Positions 8,376 to 39,573 of a DNA stretch of 64,000 nt are shown here, in pieces (position 1 is the stretch's first letter; each line of letters starts with the position of its first letter). The DNA comes from Elusimicrobia bacterium GWA2_66_18 (GTDB taxonomy: Bacteria > Elusimicrobiota > Elusimicrobia > UBA1565 > UBA9628), in contig MGTX01000009.1 of assembly GCA_001799675.1 (NCBI GenBank), forward strand, positions 1 through 64,000, in the 5' to 3' direction. A program made the translations under genes and the position numbers. The notes beneath the pieces are model-generated. The model did no database searches, was not told where the DNA came from, and saw only the letters and a program-made list of their open reading frames with translations.

Positions 8376-8418
8376 CTCGCGGTCGGAAAAAGACTCATAT
8401 TTTTATAAGATTATCCAG

Positions 8419-9256
8419 ATGAAAGATCGAATCTTCCTGAGCAGCGTGCAAAAGGACCTTGCCGCTGAACGGCGCGCGTTGAAAGACTACGTGCATGGCG
8501 ATCCGTTGCTCAGCAGATTCTTCGAGGTGTTCCTATTTTGAGGACGTCCCCGCCGCAGACCGCCGCGCCGATCATTTGTATCTGGAGGAGGTGGACCGCT
8601 GCGCCATTTACATCGGTCTTTTTGGAGATGAGTATGGCCACGAGGATGCGGAAGGATTCTCTCCGACCGAGCGCGAGTTCGACCGGGTCTCCGCCAAAGG
8701 CAAAATCCGCCTCATCTTCGTGAAAGGCGCCGACGACACGAAGAAAAATCCCAAGATGCAGGCGCTCGTCCGCAAAGCCGGTGACCAGCTGATCCGCTGG
8801 CGCTTTACCGGCGTGCCCGATCTAACCGCGAACCTCTACGCGAGCTTGATCGAGCATCTGGAGCAAACCGCCAAATTGCGCACTGGCCCCTTCGACGCCG
8901 CCGCTTACGCGGCGGCCACAACCCAAGACCTCTCAGAAGATAAGGTGCGCCAATTCCTGCGGATCGCGCATCAGGAACATTACGACGTTACCAAGCCCAC
9001 GGCTTTTCGAGATTTAGATGATCTCAAGCGCAAAGGGATTCTTAAAAAGGTCGGCACCACCGGGAAGGGAACCTATTACACCCTGTGTCGTATTGCACGA
9101 AACAGGAGGCAAAACATGATTTCTACAAGGTCATCCCGACCTGGTCGTACCGCTGGCCTTGAGCGGCAGGTGGAAAATTTTGATCAGTCGCTCCACCAGA
9201 GGGTTAGGCCATTTCCTTCTCCGGGTGACCAGATAGATGGACTCATAAATGTCTAA
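8419..9256 (+). pseudogene. Frameshifted and internally shortened DUF4062-type gene
   Basis: The reading frame starts at ATG 8419 with DRIFLSSVQKDLAAERRAL, the typical DUF4062 opening, and hits TGA at 8539 after VFLF. Removing one T from the run 8536-8539 restores the frame (FEDVPAADRRADHLYLEEV, then CAIYIGLFGDEYG and SPTEREFDRV), which continues to 9256. Family members are usually longer, with an AlbA_2/ATPase-like middle part. Here the DUF4062 domain runs almost straight into a winged-helix end (AFRDLDDLKRKGILKKVG). The last 125 bases overlap the opposite lysR gene, so the true end is probably near 9110. DUF4062 proteins occur among defence and mobile genes; function here is unknown and probably lost. 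Confidence 0.75.
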
Positions 9257-10054
9257 GGAGTGGTCGGAACCAATCACCTTGAGCCCATTTACCGGCAGGC
9301 TTGCCGAAACTGTGTATGCGTTCAATGGCACGATGCCGTGTCCGGCAACCGCCAGACGGCGCGCCAACTCCACATCCTGGACCTCGGCCACCACATTGGG
9401 CCGGACCTTCCACTGGACAAGCTCGTCCTGAAGCTGGTGGTAAACCTGGCTGGGTAATGAAGGCAGGATGAAAGGGGCTCCATCAAGGTCGCGCGGCATT
9501 TTCCTATAACGCCGTGCCAAACGAGGAGCTGCCGCTAAAACGATTGGGACCTTGCCCACGAGATGGTTAGAGAACTCCTCCTGATCCTGGCTCCGGATGC
9601 TGACATCCGAAAGGACGATATCCAACTTCTGCTGGCGCAACCCGGTTAGAAGCTCATCGAAACTCCCCTCTAGCACCGTGACGTGGGCTGTCGGCGTCTC
9701 CCTTAAAATACACTCCAAAAGCGCATGCCCAAAGGCGCGCGGGGCGGCATTTAAAATCCCCACCTGGATTGCAATCCGGCCGGCCCCGGGCCTGTCCCGA
9801 ATGGCATCCTGGAGTTCCTGCCCCATCTCAAAAATGCTTTCGGCGTAGTCCAGCACTAGGCGACCGTCCTCCGTCAGGAAAAGCCGCTGCTTTCTCCTTT
9901 CAAAGAGCCTGCGGCCGAGAGCGTCTTCGAATTGTTTCAGCTGGGCGCTCACCGTCGATTGGGCCAGAAGGAGGGTTTCGCAAGCTTTGCTGATGGTCTC
10001 CGCCTTGGCGATCACATAGAAATAATACAGATGGTGATAGTTTATCGGTATCAT
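9131..10054 (-). CDS. LysR-family regulator, NhaR-like
   Basis: Transcription factor of 307 aa. The N-terminal helix-turn-helix reads INYHHLYYFYVIAKAETIS, then the recognition helix region QSTVSAQLKQFEDALG and the conserved RRLFERRKQR wing. The opening with NYHHLYYF is closest to NhaR, the activator of the Na+/H+ antiporter. The C-terminal part is a two-lobed effector domain. No nhaA is present in the window. The gene diverges from the YkvA-like gene across an AT-rich spacer and may control it and the following terC. It belongs to the accessory patch and has lower GC than the flanks. Family assignment firm, target inferred. Confidence 0.9.
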   Translation of the reverse strand: MIPINYHHLYYFYVIAKAETISKACETLLLAQSTVSAQLKQFEDALGRRLFERRKQRLFLTEDGRLVLDYAESIFEMGQELQDAIRDRPGAGRIAIQVGILNAAPRAFGHALLECILRETPTAHVTVLEGSFDELLTGLRQQKLDIVLSDVSIRSQDQEEFSNHLVGKVPIVLAAAPRLARRYRKMPRDLDGAPFILPSLPSQVYHQLQDELVQWKVRPNVVAEVQDVELARRLAVAGHGIVPLNAYTVSASLPVNGLKVIGSDHSLDIYESIYLVTRRRKWPNPLVERLIKIFHLPLKASGTTRSG

Positions 10055-10155
10055 CGTTTTATACGAATATATTATATCAGATTATCTATTTTACAGTAAT
10101 TAATGATACTGTTATACTGCTTCCAACTTCGCAGGAAATGAACGGAGGCACGACG
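10055..10155. promoter_or_regulatory. AT-rich divergent promoter region between lysR and the YkvA-like gene
   Basis: Strongly AT-rich spacer in GC-rich surroundings. Rightward, TTACAG (10091-10096), 16 bases and TATACT (10113-10118) form a good sigma-70 promoter for the YkvA-like gene. Leftward, TATAAT-like and TATAAA hexamers lie within 25 bases of the lysR start codon. The overlap of the two promoters is typical of LysR self-control plus control of a divergent target. Confidence 0.5.
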
Positions 10156-10770
10156 ATGCTCAACGCACTAAAGAATCAACTCAAAGTGATGGCGGCCGAC
10201 CCCAACGATCCTTATACAGCGACCATCCGCAAGTTGGTAGGGGCGCGCGAGGCCGTCCATTACGAGGGGCCGCTTCGCAGAATGATTTTGGCCATGCCTT
10301 CCATGATCGCCCAGATTCGGGGATGGTTTTCTGAATTCGAATCCCCCGCGCCAAGTCGACGCCTGCACGGCTTTGCGATGGCGTACCTCTACAGCCCAGA
10401 TGATTTATTGCCGGAGCATAGCCTGGGCCTGTTCGGCTACCTGGACGATGCCTACCTGGTGGCCAAGGTTTATCATCGCAGAATGTTGGAGGCGGATTCC
10501 ACCGGTCTCTGGCCGTTCCCGGAGGACGAAAAGCTGTCCCAAGAAGTCCCCCAGTGGATAGACTTGTCAAAACAGCTTTTGCCGGAGGAGACGGCGACCA
10601 TGGATCGGATGTTGGATGCAGCGACTCAAAAGCGTGACGGGAATTTCGCTGAACTACTTTCGCAAGCCGCCAAAGGCGGTAAAACCGTCCGCCGCCTGGA
10701 GAGGAGGCATGTCCGGCCCTCGTCGCCTGCTCCAAGAAACAGTCCCAGCAAGGTGCTCTCACAGAAATGA
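10156..10770 (+). CDS. YkvA-like (DUF1232) protein
   Basis: 204-aa protein. The middle contains YLYSPDDLLPEHSLGLFGYL followed by DDAYLVAKVYHRRM, matching the DUF1232/YkvA motif (PxDLIPD...GLLGYLDD). Family members are small proteins of unknown biochemical role, often next to cation or stress genes. The second of two ATGs was chosen because GGAGG (10143-10147) lies eight bases in front of it; the ATG at 10138 would include that site in the coding sequence. It diverges from the LysR gene and runs ahead of terC, suggesting a joint cation or pH stress function. Confidence 0.75.
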   Translation: MLNALKNQLKVMAADPNDPYTATIRKLVGAREAVHYEGPLRRMILAMPSMIAQIRGWFSEFESPAPSRRLHGFAMAYLYSPDDLLPEHSLGLFGYLDDAYLVAKVYHRRMLEADSTGLWPFPEDEKLSQEVPQWIDLSKQLLPEETATMDRMLDAATQKRDGNFAELLSQAAKGGKTVRRLERRHVRPSSPAPRNSPSKVLSQK

Positions 10771-10795
10771 CGGACATGGAATTGAGGAATCCCTC

Positions 10796-11884
10796 ATGAT
10801 TGGAATCTGGATCGGCTTCACCGCGTTCATTCTCGCGCTACTGGCGCTTGACCTCGGGGTATTCCACCGCAAGGCGCATGTGGTCGACATGAAGGAGGCG
10901 CTCGCCTGGTCGGCGGTCTGGATCACGCTCGGGTTGTCGTTTAGCATCTTCATCTATTTCGCCTATGAAGGCCACTGGCTTGGCATCGGCCGCACGACCG
11001 ACCTCATGTCGGTTTCCATCTCGAACCCGCTGGGATACAACGATGGCTTCGCCGCCGCGCTGAAGTACCTGACCGGCTACCTGATCGAGAAGTCGCTCTC
11101 CGTTGACAACATCTTCGTCATCGCACTGGTGTTCGGGATGATCGGCGTACCAGCGCTCTACCGCCACCGCGTCCTGTTCTGGGGAATCCTTGGGGCGTTG
11201 GCCCTACGCGCAATCATGATCGCCCTCGGGGTCCAGTTGATAGCCCGCTTCAATTGGATTATCTACGTCTTCGGCGGCATCCTAATCATGACTGCGCTCA
11301 AGATGCTGCTGATCAAGGAGAACGCCACCGACCCCGCCGGCAGTTCCCTCGTCTGTTGGGTGAGACGCCACTTCCCAATAACCGAACGTTTCCATGGCGA
11401 ACACTTCTGGGTCAGGGCGGGGACGTCCGCCTCGCGCGAGGCAGCCGTTCCGGGCGCTTCGTTCGAGCGCGATGAGGTCGTTGAGAAGGCCAAGGCTGGG
11501 GCCTGGTTCATGACGCCGCTTCTTCTGGCGCTGCTCGTCGTCGAGTTCACCGACCTCGTCTTCGCTGTCGATTCGATTCCCGCGATCTTCGCCATCACCA
11601 CGGACCCGTTCCTGGTCTTCACCAGCAACGTGTTCGCGATACTGGGCCTGCGCAGCCTCTATTTCGCACTTGAGGGAATGCTTGGCTCCTTTCGGTATCT
11701 CAAGACCTCACTGGCCATCGTCCTGATCCTCGTTGGAGTCAAGATGATGACTCACGTCTGGCTCAAGCAGGTGGTCGGCGAGCACTTCAACCTGTGGGTG
11801 CTGGCCGGCGTAGCCTCGGTGCTGGTGACCGGCGTGCTCGCATCGATCCTGTGCCCCGAACGGAAATTGGAGGTGTCATCATGA
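10796..11884 (+). CDS. TerC/Alx family integral membrane protein
   Basis: 362-aa inner-membrane protein with about nine predicted helices. Conserved acidic motifs of the family are visible: LALDLGVFHRKAHVV near the N-terminus, EKSLSVDNIFVIALVF (about residue 100) and VVEFTDLVFAVDSIPAI (about residue 245). Members export metal ions such as manganese or respond to alkaline pH (Alx) and tellurite (TerC). Start ATG 10796 is preceded by GAGGA; the longer in-frame extension overlaps the YkvA-like gene. Its stop overlaps the htpX start (ATGA), so the two were an operon. Confidence 0.92.
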   Translation: MIGIWIGFTAFILALLALDLGVFHRKAHVVDMKEALAWSAVWITLGLSFSIFIYFAYEGHWLGIGRTTDLMSVSISNPLGYNDGFAAALKYLTGYLIEKSLSVDNIFVIALVFGMIGVPALYRHRVLFWGILGALALRAIMIALGVQLIARFNWIIYVFGGILIMTALKMLLIKENATDPAGSSLVCWVRRHFPITERFHGEHFWVRAGTSASREAAVPGASFERDEVVEKAKAGAWFMTPLLLALLVVEFTDLVFAVDSIPAIFAITTDPFLVFTSNVFAILGLRSLYFALEGMLGSFRYLKTSLAIVLILVGVKMMTHVWLKQVVGEHFNLWVLAGVASVLVTGVLASILCPERKLEVSS

Positions 11885-12213
11885 TAAAACGAGTGCTTCT
11901 ATTTGTGGCGGTCAATGCCCTGGTACTGGTGACGATTTCCATCGTCCTCCAAATCCTCGGCATCCGGCCTTACCTGACGGCATACGGGATCGATTACAAG
12001 GCGCTGATGGCCTTTTGTCTCGTCTGGGGCATGGGCGGGTCCTTCATCTCGCTGGGATTTTCCCGGATCATGGCGAAGTGGATGATGGAAGTGCAGGTCA
12101 TCGATCCACAGAAGGAGGGGGGTGAGTTGGGCAAGCTTGTCCGGACGGTACACCGCCTGGCCAGGTCAGCGAACCTGCTCATGGAACGCAGATTCGTTAA
12201 GAACTCAACTTAA
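11881..12213 (+). pseudogene. htpX: N-terminal fragment of protease HtpX, interrupted by IS debris
   Basis: 110 codons matching the start of HtpX, a membrane zinc metalloprotease of the M48 family: two N-terminal helices (KRVLLFVAVNALVLVTISIV and the ALMAFCLVWGMGGSFISLG segment), then MAKWMMEVQVIDP and LVRTVHRLARSANLLM. HtpX normally has about 290 residues and its HExxH zinc site comes after this point, so the fragment has no catalytic site. Similarity stops at about 12185 and the sequence passes into transposase remains. The last residues (ERRFVKNST) are junction sequence. It is translationally coupled to terC. Confidence 0.88.
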
Positions 12214-12230
12214 CAACGACCCTCAGTTGG

Positions 12231-12623
12231 GGGAAAGGTCGCTTCGACGCCGAGACCGGCGTCACCTACGAGTTCATCACAAACAACTTCACGCTGGCCG
12301 CGCTTTCTATCGCAAGAATCTACAAGGCCCGCTGGCAGGTGGAACTTTTCTTCAAGTGGATCAAGCAGCACCTCAAGATCAAGACGTTCCTGGGGACCTC
12401 CAAGAATGCCGTGCTCACACAGGTATGGGCGGCCATGACCTACTTCCTGCTCCTGGCCTACATCAAGTTCCAATGTCGTTTCCAACGCTCGCTCTTCCTG
12501 CCCCATCGGCTCGTTCAGAATACCCTCTTGGACCGGCTCAGCCTGATCGATTTGTTGCGTCTGCCCGAGAAAAAAATCCCCGCGTTGCGAAATGCCGGAC
12601 CTCAGCTATGCCTCGCGCTCTGA
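12231..12623 (+). mobile_element. 3' remnant of an IS4-type transposase gene
   Basis: An open frame without its own start encodes RFDAETGVTYEFITNN, IYKARWQVELFFKWIKQHLK, and then LGTSKNAVLTQVWAAMTYF. This contains the Y-(2)-R-(3)-E-(6)-K signature of IS4-family transposases (Tyr, Arg, catalytic Glu, Lys). The N-terminal two thirds with both catalytic Asp residues are missing, so it cannot be active. It joins directly to the broken htpX, so the insertion, followed by deletion, probably destroyed that gene. I could not identify terminal inverted repeats. Confidence 0.88.
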
Positions 12624-12702
12624 TTTTCCCCGGACACCAGTGATATCCAATCCAAATAATTCAAAGAACCCGAACTCACCGATCCAATCTGAGACGAGAA
12701 TT

Positions 12703-12731
12703 TTGTCAGAATGGAAACAGTCTGCTACACT
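12703..12731 (+). promoter_or_regulatory. Extended -10 promoter of the Cys-rich metal gene
   Basis: -35 TTGTCA (12703-12708), a 17-base spacer and -10 TACACT (12726-12731) with an upstream TGn extension. Six bases separate the -10 from GTG at 12738, so the transcript probably starts at the start codon. If this promoter is real, the in-frame ATG at 12711 lies inside it and cannot be the start. Confidence 0.55.
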
Positions 12732-12737
12732 GTCTTC

Positions 12738-13007
12738 GTGAGACACAGGGTCCTGGATTTCCTATGTGCCGTTACTCTGGGGCTGTTGCTTTTTGATGGC
12801 ATCGCAGACGCGATTTGTTGTCAGGATTCGCCGACATCAACTGCGTCAGCCTGCCACGCCTGCGCTTGTTGTGAGCACATAGCCTCCCACGATGCTTTCC
12901 CTTCAGCCGTTGTCCTTCAACCGACACGATACGCTCCGTTCGAGCCATCAGTCCACACCTTCCTCCTGCCGACGTCCGTCTTCCACCCTCCCTGCCATAC
13001 CGCCTGA
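12738..13007 (+). CDS. Small exported Cys-rich protein ahead of a metal efflux operon
   Basis: 89-aa protein from GTG 12738. A hydrophobic N-terminal segment (VLDFLCAVTLGLLLFDGIADA) looks like a signal peptide. It is followed by a cysteine cluster (AICCQD and CHACACCEH) and ends with an FHPPCHTA-like tail. I recall small proteins with a Cys cluster and a terminal FHPP motif in front of czc/cus-type efflux genes, but no function is established that I can name. The Cys/His cluster suggests metal binding in the periplasm. It precedes the outer-membrane factor by 152 bases. An alternative start at ATG 12711 is disfavoured by the promoter. Confidence 0.6.
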   Translation: MRHRVLDFLCAVTLGLLLFDGIADAICCQDSPTSTASACHACACCEHIASHDAFPSAVVLQPTRYAPFEPSVHTFLLPTSVFHPPCHTA

Positions 13008-13159
13008 CAAGGCTCGGTAGCAACCGCCCCTGCTGAAGCGGTCCGGCATCTCGCATGTTATTTTGACCGGCAGGATAGCCGTAACCCATAGAGGTTGCAT
13101 GCTGTTCAAACATGTTTGTCGGCTCCGATTTTGCGAAAGACATTTTTAAAGGAGGACCC

Positions 13160-14452
13160 ATGTCCAGTTCTCAACGTTATAGATTCCCCCAAGCACTCGT
13201 TCTGTCCATCCTCGCCTTGACATCCTCAAGTCAGGCCGCGGCGCAGTCCGCTACCGAGCCCGCCGACCGAAAACGCCTCATGGGCGAGCTTGTTGGACTT
13301 GCGATTCAAAATACACAATTCCTCGGCGCCCAGGACGCGCGCGTTGAGGAGAAACGCCTTTCGGCGGCGCAGACCCGCGTTTGGCCTGGCTTCTCCGCGG
13401 AATTTCTGGTAGGGCGCAAGCGCGCGGCCGACGCGAGCGGCCCGCGCTACGAGCTATCCGTGGCCCAACCGCTGTCCCTAGCTGGCAAGCTGGGTCTGCG
13501 GGGCAGCCTTCTCGATCTCGAGTCCGAGTCCTGGCGGGTCCAGCGGATCGGGTCGGAGATTCTTGTGACGCTCACCGTCGCCCAAGGGGCCTACGAGTAC
13601 GCCGCGAACCGTCGCAAGGCCGCCTTCGCTGAGAAGCGTCGCAAGCGCTTTGAGGTCATTGCGTCCTACCTAGCCGGACGGGTGTTCGCGACGCCGCAGC
13701 GCAAGGCGGAGAGCCGCATCGTTGAGAACCGTCTCAAGAACGTCGTCGCCGACGCGATATGGAGTCAGGCCCACTTCAAAGCCTCCCTGGAAAAGCTCAC
13801 ATTGTACGTGCCTCTCGACTCAGGGAAGTATCCTGACGTTGAGGTTCCGTGGCTCTCCGGCACAAAAAGACTCGATGAGAAAGAGTGGCTGGAGAAGGCT
13901 CTCACGAACAACCCCGGCCTGCGCATCCAGAGGCTCGCCGTCCAGGGCGCGGGGCTGGAGAAAACACTGGCCTCGCGCGAGGGTTTGCCGGATACGACTG
14001 TCGTGGCGTCCTATGAACAGGGGAGGGCCGCCGAGACGGAAAAGAACTACGGGCTGGGTCTGATCCTAGCTCTTCCATCATGGAACCGCAATCGGTCCGG
14101 AGTCAGGAGCGCGGAGCAGCGAGAGCTCGCCGAAGAGCGCCAACTCGGCTACGAGGAGCAGAAGATTAAGGCCGAGCTTCCCCGAACGCTGGTAGAGTAT
14201 GAGGCGGCGCGCCAAGTCGTCCTCAAATACCCCCCGGAGATGATGACCGAGCTGGAGTCACAGCTCCAGGACGCGGACGAGGGCTTCCGTAAAGGACAGG
14301 TGGATCTCCTGACCTTCCTGGAACTGGACGGCTCCGCCGCCGAGACCTACGGCCTCGCCCTCGATGCCCAGGTGGATCTAGCCGCTAAGGCGGCGGAATT
14401 GCTGGCGCTGACGGCCGACCGCGACGCTTTGACCAGGCTCGCGTCATTTTAG
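13160..14452 (+). CDS. TolC-family outer-membrane efflux protein (CzcC/CusC-like)
   Basis: 430-aa exported protein with signal peptide (LVLSILALTSSSQAAAQS). Long helical repeats with coiled-coil character, two repeated halves and the loop MMTELESQLQDADEGFRKGQ followed by VDLLTFLELDG match the outer-membrane efflux protein family that forms the periplasm-spanning exit channel of RND pumps. The start ATG 13160 has an excellent site (AAAGGAGG); an in-frame extension upstream to 13112 is rejected. The czcA-like gene begins 10 bases after its stop, so the two are co-transcribed. Such systems normally also have an adaptor gene, which is absent here. Confidence 0.88.
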   Translation: MSSSQRYRFPQALVLSILALTSSSQAAAQSATEPADRKRLMGELVGLAIQNTQFLGAQDARVEEKRLSAAQTRVWPGFSAEFLVGRKRAADASGPRYELSVAQPLSLAGKLGLRGSLLDLESESWRVQRIGSEILVTLTVAQGAYEYAANRRKAAFAEKRRKRFEVIASYLAGRVFATPQRKAESRIVENRLKNVVADAIWSQAHFKASLEKLTLYVPLDSGKYPDVEVPWLSGTKRLDEKEWLEKALTNNPGLRIQRLAVQGAGLEKTLASREGLPDTTVVASYEQGRAAETEKNYGLGLILALPSWNRNRSGVRSAEQRELAEERQLGYEEQKIKAELPRTLVEYEAARQVVLKYPPEMMTELESQLQDADEGFRKGQVDLLTFLELDGSAAETYGLALDAQVDLAAKAAELLALTADRDALTRLASF

Positions 14453-35271: not shown

Positions 35272-35341
35272 TGGGACCTACGCATCTTTGGGTAGGCCTT
35301 TCAGCCCAGGCGTGGGCGTAAAGATCGCATACACTTCTCTA

Positions 35342-37921
35342 ATGATCTCGGGTAAGATTCCATCCCTACTCTCCGCTGTTCTCGTTGCGATTTCGTTTGC
35401 CGCGTTCAGCAATCCCGACTGTCATGCCGCCGGGACGATCCAGGCCCGGAAAAACGACGGGACGTTCGGTTCGGTTTATTTGGCGCGAGACCTCCAGATG
35501 CATCTGGGAGGAATTGCCCCGTTGATAACGCCGCTGCTCTCCTCGACGTTGGCCGAAACGCCTCGCCTGGATGCATCGGAGTTGATCACGACTTTGCAAA
35601 AACAGATCACGGCTCGCGAAGCGACCCCGAGCCAGATGTACGCCGGCTTGGTTTTGATGCAGGCCATGAGCCGGCCCGAGCATTCAGCCCGGGTCAAGGA
35701 TTTTCTGGAATCTTTCAGGACTTCCGGACAGCCCGGTCTTGACCCGAATGCGGACGGTCGTCATTTGATCGCCGAAATGGAAGCTTGGTCCTCTGTCTTG
35801 AACAGGGATCCTGAAGCCCAAAAATCGATTTCCCGGGCACGGATAGCGCTGCACCGGAAATTGTTGAGCAACGGACGGTTGGATCAAGCGACCGCGGAGT
35901 CCTTGGAATCCCATTTCCGAACCCTCTTTGATGGAGCGCAAACAGCTCGTGCCGCCGGCCTTCCAACGGCCGGAGCGGTCTTCGCCGGACACGGCGGGGT
36001 ATCGAAATCTTTCGTGCGACTGCAGCATGATCAGGCGATGAAGGGAGTTTTGGCCGATCCGTCGCTGCTGGCCCGCGTCAACGCGATGCGGTCATCCGCT
36101 AAGCCCGTAGTCACGGATCTATCCCTGGAGGCGTTTCTTCCTGAACTTGACGGGGACGGCCAACTGGCGCTGGGAGTCGGCGGTCTTGGTTTCCTGACCG
36201 GCGAAAGTTGGGGCGCCTATCAGAAGCTGAGCAAATTCCATGGCGTGGGAGTCATGCCGTTGTACGCTCAGGTCTCCGGTCCTAAAGGCTTGAAAACGAT
36301 CGATTGGAATAGCGAACCGGGAATTGCGCCCGTGCTGGTGCGCGACAAAGACGGACGGCAGCAGCCGCTGCGGTTCGAGGTTGAGTTTAAAGGCAGCCGA
36401 AAGAACGAGGTCTCGGTCTATTGGATCGACCGCGGTGGAACGCCGGTCTTCCTTCTCTATTCACCCGGCATGTTTCGGCGGCTGTATCCCGGCGGTGAGG
36501 AACAGGTCATTCAGTACGGCTTTTTCGCGCGAGCGTATGTGGAACTGATGAAAAAACTAGATCTGACGCCCGCCATCGTCCGCCTCAACGAACCCCAGCT
36601 CGCCTTTACGGCCAACGCCGCGAAAAACGACGTGGACTGGCACAACCATGCAGGTCTTAAAAGCGTTTTTGACGGCGCCCGTTTCGCGATGACGACGCAT
36701 ACCCCTGAGAGGGCGGCCCTTCCCTCCTGGGACGTGGAATGGCTTAAAGAACATATCGGCGCGGACCTCGTGCGAGACTGGGAGGGCGCCCGCGAACTGA
36801 TCGTCGATCGTGGGGGCCGGCGGATCGCCGATGCCGCGGTCGGGCTGGCCCGCATGTCGGCGATCGTCAACGCCGTCGCCGAAGAACACGAGCGAGTCAC
36901 AAAAACCGTCGTCTTGCCTGAGTTCGCAGACAAGATCGTAGGAATCCAAAACGGCTCCGACCCGGAGTTCTGGTACTCGGACGATCTTTGGGACAGAGTA
37001 CACCGGGCGCACTCTCTGGAAGAAATTTCAGGCGAGGAACTCTTCCAAATCGGACTGGAGCAAAAACGCACGTTCAACCGCTACCTACAGGATCATTTCG
37101 GCGCTCACTTCCAGGAACCTGATCGCCCTCTGGTGGGATTGGTCAGGCGTTTGGTGGAGTATAAGGAGCAAGGAATGCTCCTTCCCCTGGTGCAATGGAT
37201 CACGGGAGATCGCGACAAGGAATACGACACCCCGTCGGGACGCATGAAAGGGCTCGGCATGAACCTTCTGATCGGCGGGCAAGCGCGCGACGACGTTGGA
37301 GAAGTCTGGCGGCGCCAGTTCCAGACTCTTGCGCAGCGGGCGGATCTGCGCGGCAGGTTCGTGTTCGTCGAAGGGACCGGCATCGAGTTGCTCCGGCAGG
37401 GGGCCGCCGCTTCGGACGTCTGGGTCAGCATACCACAGCCGACGCGCGAGGCATCCGGGACCAGCGACGAGAGAGCCGGCTTTAACGGCAAGAAAAATGT
37501 AGCCACGGCGACAGGCGGACCGCTGGCGTACATCGTGGAGGGAGTGACCGGCTGGCTCATCGACATCTTCAAGGACCGGCCCTTTCCCGACGTCGTGCGC
37601 CGTTTCAACGAGCATGATCAGGACATGATCAATGAATATCGGGACAAGGGCGCGAAGGCCCTCGCATCGCATCTGGCGGACGCCTCCCGGCGCTACTACG
37701 CTTACACCGAGCGAGGCGAGGGCCGGTGGGCGAGGCAGATGCGCCTAGCTTTCCTGATCGCCCATCGGGAAGTTTCGATCGGAGCGATGATCCAGAAGTA
37801 CGGCCTCCTATTCGAAAGCATCCTCGACGGCACCGGGGCCGCCGGCTTCCGGGAAAAGACGGCGCGTCTGCGCTCCACTCAAAATGCCGGAGCAGCTTTC
37901 CGATCTCCCGGTCGGTCTTGA
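35342..37921 (+). CDS. Exported glucan-phosphorylase-like (GT35-related) protein lacking the PLP lysine
   Basis: 859 aa. A Sec signal peptide (about 1-30: IPSLLSAVLVAISFAAFSNP, ending HAAG) is followed by a helical region (about 40-260) and a GT-B fold part similar to glycogen/alpha-glucan phosphorylase. Recognisable are GVGGLGFLTGESWGAYQKL (about 280), the RLNEPQLAFTA and TTHTPERAALPSWD stretches, and LVGLVRRLVEYKEQGMLL. The pocket motif EASGTGNMKFMLNG of phosphorylases reads EASGTSDERAGFNG here (about 702-715), with Arg where the pyridoxal-phosphate Lys should be. Export and loss of that Lys argue against a normal cytosolic phosphorylase; it may be a glycosyltransferase or binding protein. 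A -10-like TACACT ends six bases before the ATG. Confidence 0.7.
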   Translation: MISGKIPSLLSAVLVAISFAAFSNPDCHAAGTIQARKNDGTFGSVYLARDLQMHLGGIAPLITPLLSSTLAETPRLDASELITTLQKQITAREATPSQMYAGLVLMQAMSRPEHSARVKDFLESFRTSGQPGLDPNADGRHLIAEMEAWSSVLNRDPEAQKSISRARIALHRKLLSNGRLDQATAESLESHFRTLFDGAQTARAAGLPTAGAVFAGHGGVSKSFVRLQHDQAMKGVLADPSLLARVNAMRSSAKPVVTDLSLEAFLPELDGDGQLALGVGGLGFLTGESWGAYQKLSKFHGVGVMPLYAQVSGPKGLKTIDWNSEPGIAPVLVRDKDGRQQPLRFEVEFKGSRKNEVSVYWIDRGGTPVFLLYSPGMFRRLYPGGEEQVIQYGFFARAYVELMKKLDLTPAIVRLNEPQLAFTANAAKNDVDWHNHAGLKSVFDGARFAMTTHTPERAALPSWDVEWLKEHIGADLVRDWEGARELIVDRGGRRIADAAVGLARMSAIVNAVAEEHERVTKTVVLPEFADKIVGIQNGSDPEFWYSDDLWDRVHRAHSLEEISGEELFQIGLEQKRTFNRYLQDHFGAHFQEPDRPLVGLVRRLVEYKEQGMLLPLVQWITGDRDKEYDTPSGRMKGLGMNLLIGGQARDDVGEVWRRQFQTLAQRADLRGRFVFVEGTGIELLRQGAAASDVWVSIPQPTREASGTSDERAGFNGKKNVATATGGPLAYIVEGVTGWLIDIFKDRPFPDVVRRFNEHDQDMINEYRDKGAKALASHLADASRRYYAYTERGEGRWARQMRLAFLIAHREVSIGAMIQKYGLLFESILDGTGAAGFREKTARLRSTQNAGAAFRSPGRS

Positions 37922-38040
37922 TGATGACGAGGACGTGGCGCTGCGGGGGCTTGTCAGCGAGGCGATGGGCCCGCTCAATAGGTCCTCCTGGGACTTTCGC
38001 TCCTGGCGCAATGAGAGGCGTGTCGCTATCATCAATGAGC

Positions 38041-39573
38041 ATGAGGCGTTTCTATTTTTCCGCCTGGGTCTGGATCGTCTTGGCCGCGACGACGTCCGCG
38101 CGCGCGGCCGTGCGCGGCGTCCCGATCATGCCGGCCGGCGTCGTTTGTGCGCCCGTCTCGGCCGGAGTGGCGGTCTCGGCCCCGACCCTGACCGGCGGGG
38201 CGTTCCTTGGCGAGAAACTCAACGGCCTGGCGATCCTGCGCGAGTCCCTGGAAGCGCGCGGAGACGTCGAGGCCCTGGCCTTGGCGGAGCGCCTGAATGA
38301 CACCGACCCGCTCACCGGACTGCCCAACCGAGCCTTCTTCATCGCGCATGGAGATGAAGCCCTCCGAGGCTTCGCTGACCCGACCGTCGCGCTGTTGGAC
38401 ATGAACAACTTCGGGGCCGTCAACGTCGGCTTGGCCGACCATCACGGCGTGACCAAGGGTCGTGCGCGCGCCGATGCGGTGCTCGCCATCGCGGGCGCGG
38501 CGCTCGGCGAGCTCGCTCACGAGCACGGGGTCCTGGTCGTGCGCCTGGGGGGCGAGGAGTTCGCGGTCCTGGGGCCCCGCGAGCAGGTCCTGGCGTTCGC
38601 GGGCGCGGCGCGGCGAGCTTTGCCCGCTGAGCGGGTCCTGGAGGCCGCGGGCATCCTCAAGGGCGGCGCGGAGCGCCGCGCCATCGAGGCCGCCCTGGTC
38701 CGCCTCGGTCGCGGCGAACAGCCCATGGGCGACTTCACTTACGGCGTGGCCTCGACGCGAGGGCGTACGGTCGCCGCGGCGCTGGAGGACGCCGACGCCG
38801 CGCTGACCGGCGCAAAAGACGCCGGCAGGCGCGGGGGCATATTCCTGGCCGACGCCGACGGCAGCCGCAGCGAGTGGGTCCCGCCCGCCGCTGAAGAGGC
38901 CGCGCTGCGCGAACTGCCCCTGCCCGCGGCGGCGCACGCGACCGAGTACGTCGCGCGGCTTGAGGATCGTCTGACGCCGCAGGAACGCGAGGTCTTACAC
39001 GAAACCGCCTTCAAGGACCCTCTCACGTCGGCGCGCCGCTACGACTACGTCTCGGTCCGGGCCGACGAATGGGACCGCCTTTACGCCGGAGGCGGCGCGA
39101 CCGCGACGCTGCTCTCGGTCCGGAACCTCAAGCAGATCAACGATCTGCTCGGCCATGACGCGGGCGACGCCTACCTAAGCCGTCTCGGGAGCATCCTCCG
39201 CGGCGAGGTCGCCCGCGCCCGCCGCGCGCGTCTCGACGTGCGGGAGCCGGTGCGCGTGGCCTCCAAAGAGTTCCTGCTCGTCGGCCGCGACGCGGCCGTC
39301 GTGGCGCGCCGCGTCGCGCGCGAGGTGGAGCGGACGTTCGACGGCGGGATGCTCTCCAAAGAGCGGGTCATGCGCCTGCGCCGCGAGAGCATGGAGCGCG
39401 GCCTGGTCCCCGCCGGGCGCGCGAGCCTCATCGGAACCCTTCGCGTCATATCCGAGCCGCTCTCGCTGCCGGGAAGGACGGCGGACGTCAAGGACGCTCT
39501 CGATCGGGCCTTCGAGCGTCTCGAGTCGAAGAAGCGCTCCGAGGACGCCGCCCCCTCCTCGCGGGCGCTTTGA
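38041..39573 (+). CDS. Exported protein with two degenerate GGDEF domains
   Basis: 510 aa. A signal peptide (MRRFYFSAWVWIVLAATTSA, then RA) is followed by a short linker and two GGDEF-like domains. The first (about 90-265) keeps NDTDPLTGLPNRAFF and RLGGEEFAVLG but its metal site reads LDMNNFGAVN, with one Asp and the Lys replaced. The second (about 320-490) keeps DPLTSARRYDY and LKQINDLLGHDAGDAYL but has VASKEFLLVG instead of GGDEF and no metal Asp. No RxxD inhibitory site precedes GGEEF. Diguanylate cyclases work in the cytoplasm; an exported one has no known substrate supply, so a non-enzymatic role is likely. Start ATG 38041 or 38035. It sits between the GT35-like gene and pyrB. Confidence 0.72.
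   Translation: MRRFYFSAWVWIVLAATTSARAAVRGVPIMPAGVVCAPVSAGVAVSAPTLTGGAFLGEKLNGLAILRESLEARGDVEALALAERLNDTDPLTGLPNRAFFIAHGDEALRGFADPTVALLDMNNFGAVNVGLADHHGVTKGRARADAVLAIAGAALGELAHEHGVLVVRLGGEEFAVLGPREQVLAFAGAARRALPAERVLEAAGILKGGAERRAIEAALVRLGRGEQPMGDFTYGVASTRGRTVAAALEDADAALTGAKDAGRRGGIFLADADGSRSEWVPPAAEEAALRELPLPAAAHATEYVARLEDRLTPQEREVLHETAFKDPLTSARRYDYVSVRADEWDRLYAGGGATATLLSVRNLKQINDLLGHDAGDAYLSRLGSILRGEVARARRARLDVREPVRVASKEFLLVGRDAAVVARRVAREVERTFDGGMLSKERVMRLRRESMERGLVPAGRASLIGTLRVISEPLSLPGRTADVKDALDRAFERLESKKRSEDAAPSSRAL

What the first reader, a model, noticed from the sequence alone, without database searches (positions are those of the whole stretch)
35342..39573. Two exported, degenerate enzyme-like proteins inside a nucleotide biosynthesis cluster
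Between purK and pyrB lie two consecutive genes whose products both start with Sec signal peptides: a GT35 (glycogen phosphorylase)-like protein and a protein with two GGDEF-like domains. Families that normally work in the cytosol on glucans and GTP are exported here, and both have changed active sites. Each has its own start-proximal -10 element. They may form a new periplasmic or secreted pair acting on a glycan or nucleotide-derived ligand. The pairing is an inference from adjacency and shared export.
Basis: partly seen in the sequence, partly recalled or inferred. Interest (0 to 1): 0.7.

Follow-up and report, generated by a model that had tools for sequence, protein, structure and literature searches.

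The report
Exported tandem GGDEF protein, orphan neighbour
Two neighbouring genes of an uncultured Elusimicrobia-type bacterium encode enzyme-like proteins with export signals; they are not a conserved pair, but one carries a strongly conserved, lopsided double GGDEF unit (a family that normally makes a signal molecule inside cells) that in relatives also occurs in giant proteins with toxin-type domains.

Summary
Both ORFs are real and both N-termini look like Sec signal peptides, but the pair is not conserved. P0001 (35342-37921) has no full-length relative in 57 other genomes and is compositionally atypical. It joins a ~210-aa domain, probably related to a standalone exported family, to a GT35-like fold whose PLP lysine is arginine (R711), so phosphorolysis is very unlikely. 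P0002 (38041-39573) is the better story: a ~430-aa tandem GGDEF module in 14 of 340 phylum genomes, 13 of them one genus. Its asymmetry is conserved: domain 1 keeps the metal Asp and GGEE in 12 of 12 rows; domain 2 has lost the metal positions (S/A, K) but keeps ND, GH and GD in 11 of 11. So 'both active sites changed' is half right, and the module is under selection rather than decaying. In two relatives it sits in giant ORFs carrying EndoU or CdiA_C domains, whose N-termini I could not see. Best reading: a guanine-nucleotide-binding module of an exported, polymorphic-toxin-like protein set, with P0001 an unrelated recent arrival. Export, cleavage and chemistry are untested.

The parts
35330..35335 (+). 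TACACT, -10-like element 12 nt before the P0001 ATG (leaderless type)
   Evidence: read; distance matches the genome's peak (15 of 122 promoter-proximal ATG genes at exactly 12 nt)
35342..35431 (+). P0001 signal-peptide-like N-terminus (residues 1-30, MISGKIPS...CHAA)
   Evidence: hydrophobicity 2.65, AxA-like CHA-A; aligned with the signal-like N-terminus of the L065 protein
35432..36091 (+). P0001 N-terminal domain (about residues 31-250), ending near the LFDG motif
   Evidence: 38% identity to the N-terminus of a 2380-aa ORF of G041; probable relation to a standalone exported family (hhalign Prob 92.7, E 4.2e-7, 90 columns)
36092..37921 (+). P0001 GT35-like GT-B region (residues 251-859 plus stop); PLP Lys replaced by R711, E703, H453, N537, R602-R603 and K608 kept
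   Evidence: TIGR02094 match over residues 274-820; alignment with five phosphorylases of relatives
38027..38032 (+). TATCAT, -10-like element 14 nt before the P0002 ATG
   Evidence: read; within the enriched 11-16 nt zone
38041..38106 (+). P0002 signal-peptide-like N-terminus (residues 1-22, ends ARA-A)
   Evidence: hydrophobicity 2.03; closely matching N-terminus in G004 (L077)
38107..38208 (+). P0002 low-confidence linker, residues 23-56
   Evidence: pLDDT under 50 for residues 1-60
38209..38868 (+). P0002 GGDEF domain 1 with lead-in helices (about residues 57-276): D120, N128, D145, G170-E173, K259, R264
38926..39552 (+). P0002 GGDEF domain 2 (about residues 296-504): S359, R361, N367, D368, G371, H372, G375, D376, K409-F411
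   Evidence: second PF00990 stretch; conservation; confident in the model

Best explanation
The two genes are independent. P0002 is an exported carrier of a fixed tandem GGDEF module, nearly confined to one Elusimicrobia-type genus. Domain 1 has the residues of a metal- and guanine-binding diguanylate-cyclase domain (with an 8-residue insertion between the N and D of the guanine site); domain 2 has lost the metal positions but kept the guanine-binding ones. Shown: sequence, conservation, the fold of domain 1, signal-like N-termini, and co-occurrence with EndoU or CdiA_C domains in giant ORFs of two relatives. Inferred: the module binds guanine nucleotides outside the producing cell's cytosol, as one part of a modular, polymorphic-toxin-like exported set, either acting inside another cell or serving as a structural or pre-toxin part. 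P0001 is a lineage-restricted fusion of an exported domain with a GT-B fold that can no longer use PLP-dependent phosphorolysis; its likely role is glycan binding, or sugar transfer of another type (inferred, weak).
For: Module in 14 of 340 phylum genomes at E <= 1e-20, 13 in one genus. Asymmetry: D120 and GGEE 12 of 12, D145 12 of 12, N128 11 of 12; domain 2 N367, D368, GH, GD and KEF 11 of 11 (the 12th row is cut), with S (10) or A (1) at the metal position. Model of P0002 with mean pLDDT 81.6, pTM 0.77. Signal-like N-termini in 9 of 9 visible carriers, one weak. EndoU_bacteria 27.6 bits against 25.3 and FHA in L075; CdiA_C 43.2 bits against 26.6 in L078; two small overlapping ORFs follow the L075 EndoU end. 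Sec signal peptides are listed as one export route of polymorphic toxins (PMC3482391, passages). Three secretins in the genome. P0001: R711 against Lys in 5 of 5 relatives; GC3 atypical; no full-length relative.
Against: Neither P0002 nor P0001 has a recognised toxin domain or an adjacent immunity-like gene. The N-termini of the L075 and L078 proteins are not seen (contig end; frame not resolved), so secretion of those two is assumed. Four of the 13 other carriers are cut at contig ends. GTP is not expected in a periplasm (general knowledge), so a periplasmic cyclase makes little sense. The signal-peptide call rests on a simple measure with at least one clear false positive (carB). Domain 2 was barely tested in the structural comparison.
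Confidence: 0.45

Rival explanations
1. P0002 stays in or under the producer's own envelope as a nucleotide or dinucleotide receptor (for example sensing extracellular guanine nucleotides), with no toxic or effector role.
For: Conserved guanine-binding positions in both domains with metal ligands lost in domain 2 suit binding; no toxin domain in P0002 itself; several carriers are simple signal + linker + module proteins.
Against: GGEE and the metal Asp of domain 1 are kept in 12 of 12, which a pure receptor would not need; two relatives carry toxin-type domains in the same ORF.
Confidence: 0.25
2. The hydrophobic N-termini are uncleaved anchors with the enzyme part in the cytosol, so P0002 is an ordinary membrane-tethered GGDEF protein.
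For: No cleavage data; the hydrophobicity measure also flags a cytosolic carB-like start; a cytosolic location would supply GTP.
Against: Positive charges precede the hydrophobic stretch, and in several carriers none follow it (for example L070, L071), which favours C-out; AxA-like sites follow at the usual distance; association with EndoU and CdiA_C domains.
Confidence: 0.2
3. One reading: P0001 and P0002 form a new exported two-gene system.
For: Adjacent, same strand, both with signal-like N-termini.
Against: Pair seen in 1 genome only; P0001 in 1 of 58 genomes at full length and in none of the 14 stretches around the other carriers' modules; different composition; separate promoter-like elements; 120-nt gap.
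Confidence: 0.07

Closest known systems
Diguanylate cyclase GGDEF domains (PF00990; DgcZ 3tvk, PleD 1w25)
   Different: Signal-like N-terminus with no cytosolic segment, 8-residue insertion in the guanine loop, no RxxD inhibitory site by reading (canonical position recalled), and an obligatory second domain with KEF and no metal Asp.
Alpha-glucan phosphorylase, GT35 (TIGR02094; 9l6i)
   Same: GT-B core with E703, H453, N537, R602-R603 and K608; phmmer E 9e-7 to 9l6i.
   Different: PLP lysine is R711, score far below the family cut-off, signal-like N-terminus and an extra N-terminal domain.
Polymorphic toxin systems (PMC3482391)
   Same: Modular proteins with signal peptides, EndoU or CdiA_C domains and small ORFs downstream in relatives.
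   Different: P0002 itself has no toxin or immunity part; 'GGDEF' occurs 0 times in the held text of that catalogue (first 300,000 of 357,715 characters).
Polyvalent proteins of phages and conjugative elements (PMC5512222)
   Same: Giant multi-domain proteins that include a GGDEF domain (passages).
   Different: Those are mobile-element proteins; here two viral-contig scans found no relative of either protein.
Predicted T3SS effectors of gut commensals with GGDEF domains (PMC12872453)
   Same: 58 machine-learning candidate effectors are reported to hold PF00990 (passage), a precedent for GGDEF proteins proposed to leave the cell.
   Different: Predicted for another route and phylum; no tandem asymmetric module is described in the passage seen.

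Membership tests
GGDEF diguanylate cyclase (PF00990) | profile match over the curated cut-off | tested here: met
   75 bits against 23.8, two stretches
GGDEF diguanylate cyclase (PF00990) | metal Asp and GG(D/E)EF in domain 1 | tested here: met
   D120 and GGEE in 12 of 12 rows; residue roles recalled from PleD
GGDEF diguanylate cyclase (PF00990) | metal Asp and GG(D/E)EF in domain 2 | tested here: not met
   S/A at the metal position and (A/G/S)(S/G/A)KEF in 11 of 11 rows with that region
GGDEF diguanylate cyclase (PF00990) | synthesis of c-di-GMP from GTP | not testable with these tools
   needs purified protein
GT35 alpha-glucan phosphorylase (TIGR02094) | score over the family cut-off | tested here: not met
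   81.2 bits against 191.7
GT35 alpha-glucan phosphorylase (TIGR02094) | PLP-binding lysine | tested here: not met
   R711 in P0001, Lys in 5 of 5 aligned relatives
GT35 alpha-glucan phosphorylase (TIGR02094) | other core active-site residues | tested here: met
   E703, H453, N537, R602-R603, K608 invariant in the 6-row alignment; roles recalled
Polymorphic toxin system | export signal | tested here: inconclusive
   signal-like by a simple measure; no dedicated predictor
Polymorphic toxin system | toxin domain in the window protein | tested here: not met
   only GGDEF found in P0002 at E <= 10 in Pfam; toxin-type domains only in relatives L075 and L078
Polymorphic toxin system | adjacent immunity gene in the window | tested here: not met
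   next gene is pyrB-like, 54 nt downstream
Conserved two-gene system | co-occurrence of both genes in relatives | tested here: not met
   P0001 full length in 1 of 58 genomes; P0002 module in 14 of 340

The most novel reading that the evidence does not exclude
P0002 is an exported, pseudo-heterodimeric cyclase: domain 1 supplies the metal site, domain 2 a metal-free guanine pocket, and the protein acts inside other cells, making or draining a guanine-based signal as a secreted effector, with GT-B (P0001), Fic-HAD and other normally cytosolic enzyme types exported by the same lineage for the same purpose.
Probability: 0.15. Interest if true: 0.8.

Novelty: new variant of a known kind. Interest (0 to 1): 0.45.

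Why it matters
GGDEF proteins are almost always discussed as intracellular signalling enzymes. A genus-specific, asymmetrically conserved tandem that carries export signals and travels with toxin-type domains would be a new use of the fold and a testable route to extracellular or cross-cell cyclic-dinucleotide biology in uncultured Elusimicrobia-type bacteria. It also shows that the 'pair' in the finding is an accident of one genome, which saves work on a complex that probably does not exist.

Tried and rejected
P0001 in other collections: genome-contig scan found none (25 pattern stretches, none confirmed); viral contigs with alignment A1 none; the phylum search with residues 27-319 hit only G000 and G041 of 340. 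AlphaFold of P0001 from a single sequence was useless (mean pLDDT 35.4), so no fold search was made with it and the helical look of its N-domain is not claimed. A2 in viral contigs: none. The genome-contig scan with A2 gave 35 loci: 11 strong ones (9 titled Elusimicrobia or Elusimicrobiota, 2 titled only 'bacterium'), and 24 weaker ones (26-42% identity) from other phyla that look like ordinary GGDEF matches.

A recurring 'LFDG/FFDQ' motif as a sorting signal was tested on the sampled genome and rejected: 3 of 81 signal-like proteins and 3 of 292 others hold [LFIM]FD[GQ], 3 occurrences each. A sweeping claim that the lineage exports cytosolic enzymes in bulk was not supported: of 56 proteins scanned together (55 of the 56 signal-like ones of 225 aa or more, one carB-like false positive dropped, plus P0001), the families listed first are mostly ordinary envelope ones (25 of 81 families shown). 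CdiB-type transporter search: the control rang nowhere, so no conclusion. Structural similarity of the tandem to class III adenylyl cyclase tandems appeared in Foldseek rows (rmsd 14-16 A) and was not taken as evidence. Inclusion of L117 in the N-domain family rested on E 0.0038 per genome in a 340-genome search, which chance can give; the later hhalign comparison without P0001 and L065 is what supports it, over 90 columns only.
Full report
What is there. The window is contig C9 of a 34-contig genome. Between a purK-like and a pyrB-like gene lie P0001 (859 aa, ATG 35342) and P0002 (510 aa, ATG 38041).

Export signals. Both N-termini have a positively charged start, a hydrophobic core and an AxA-like site. 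The measure is crude: 3 of 21 control genes also exceed 1.9, one of them a carB-like false positive. For P0002 the case is helped by its relatives: of 9 carriers whose N-terminus is in the contig, 8 score 1.95 or more and one 1.61. For P0001 it is helped by the one protein that shares its N-terminus (L065, score 2.49). The -10-like elements are real and of a leaderless type common in this genome: TANNNT begins 11-16 nt before the ATG 37 times in 122 promoter-proximal genes against 10.1 expected, and 23 times in 170 other genes against 4.1.

P0001. It matches alpha-glucan phosphorylases weakly (TIGR02094, E 7e-23, well below cut-off). Aligned with five phosphorylases of relatives (22-25% identity), it keeps E703, H453, N537, R602-R603 and K608, but has R711 where all five have the PLP lysine (roles of residues recalled). 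So it is not a working GT35 phosphorylase by the known mechanism. Among 58 genomes (own, 18 congeners, others), 44 have some match, but apart from the own gene the matches cover either the N-terminal part (G041 only) or GT35 parts only. GC3 is 0.695 against a mean of 0.839 (sd 0.070) over 59 window genes, while P0002 has 0.875. A recent arrival or fast-evolving gene is the simplest reading.

The N-terminal domain of P0001. It is 38% identical to the start of a 2380-aa ORF in G041, which is otherwise unrelated to phosphorylases and has no Pfam match at E <= 0.01. A profile search over 340 phylum genomes, after adding one weak candidate, brought in 21 genomes at E <= 0.01, 17 of them at E < 1e-10 (3 of these 17 hold the model's own rows); most are standalone ORFs of about 200-260 aa with signal-like starts, including one in the own genome. 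Profile-profile comparison of the standalone set (without P0001 and L065) with the P0001/L065 pair gives Prob 92.7, E 4.2e-7 over 90 columns. Relation is therefore probable for the first half of the domain.

Company of the module. In L075 (G016) it lies in an ORF of over 3200 aa with an FHA domain and a C-terminal EndoU nuclease domain (27.6 bits, cut-off 25.3), followed by two small overlapping ORFs with similar ends. In L078 (G033) it is followed by a CdiA_C domain (43.2 bits, cut-off 26.6), which is internal, not C-terminal. The N-termini of both are not seen. Other carriers are 500-870 aa proteins with signal, A/P/V-rich linker and the module, some with one further conserved unnamed domain (L072, L073, L074, L076, also in L075; by reading; no Pfam match for it).

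Pair or not. In 3 of the 13 other carriers (G004, G005, G013) a purK lies in the fetched stretch, always convergent to the module and in G004 about 2.3 kb away with another ORF between; several contigs are too short to tell. None of the 14 stretches holds a P0001 relative. The pair is thus seen once.

Mechanism. Most likely P0002 binds guanine nucleotides with domain 1 (metal-competent) and domain 2 (metal-free). Whether it makes a product, and where, is open. The association with EndoU and CdiA_C makes an exported, conflict-related role the leading guess; a receptor role and a cytosolic anchor are the main rivals. Secretins exist in the genome (3), so outer-membrane passage of Sec substrates is possible.

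Literature seen. PMC3482391 (passages) lists Sec signal peptides as one toxin export route, and glycosyltransferase and RelA/SpoT-like toxin domains; 'GGDEF' is absent from the held part. PMC5512222 (passages) reports GGDEF in polyvalent phage and plasmid proteins. PMC12872453 (passage) reports 58 predicted commensal T3SS effectors with PF00990. PMC11573180 (passages) reports Elusimicrobiota as rich in huge proteins. PMC7159879 (passages) mentions GGDEF in conflict systems. Searches were otherwise seen as listings only; in those listings and passages I saw no exported tandem GGDEF module, which is not proof of absence.

Noticed in passing
L145:9841-12072 (own genome, C9): Signal-like N-terminus, A/P-rich linker, then a Fic domain (E 1e-12; HPLVNTNGRAGR, so the usual acidic residue is Asn by reading) and a HAD hydrolase (E 6e-28) in one 743-aa protein.
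   Followed up: partly
L146:15610-19056 (own genome, C9): 1148-aa protein with a signal-like N-terminus and LonB-type AAA+ and Lon protease domains.
   Followed up: no
L151:31-1155 (own genome, C17): Exported-looking Endonuclease I protein with an A/P-rich linker (E 8e-38).
   Followed up: no
window and L144-L161: Leaderless-type promoters: TANNNT beginning 12 nt before ATG in 15 of 122 promoter-proximal and 12 of 170 other ATG genes; SD-like motif in 29 of 122 and 38 of 170.
   Followed up: partly
L130 (G000:C32:96226-96822) and relatives L117, L131-L143: A standalone exported family of roughly 200-260 aa, often ending in (L/F)FDG, with no function known to me; scattered over the genus and order.
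   Followed up: partly
L065:762-7904 (G041): 2380-aa ORF with GHKL-ATPase-like motifs (by reading only) and a weak transglutaminase-like match (E 0.014).
   Followed up: partly
window 8400-13300: Low-GC stretch (0.56-0.58) holding atypical genes and a short ORF at 12339-12623 that looks like a transposase piece (by reading).
   Followed up: no
L075:9755-11043 (G016): Two overlapping small ORFs (298 and 131 aa) right behind the EndoU end, with similar C-terminal ends: immunity-like candidates.
   Followed up: no
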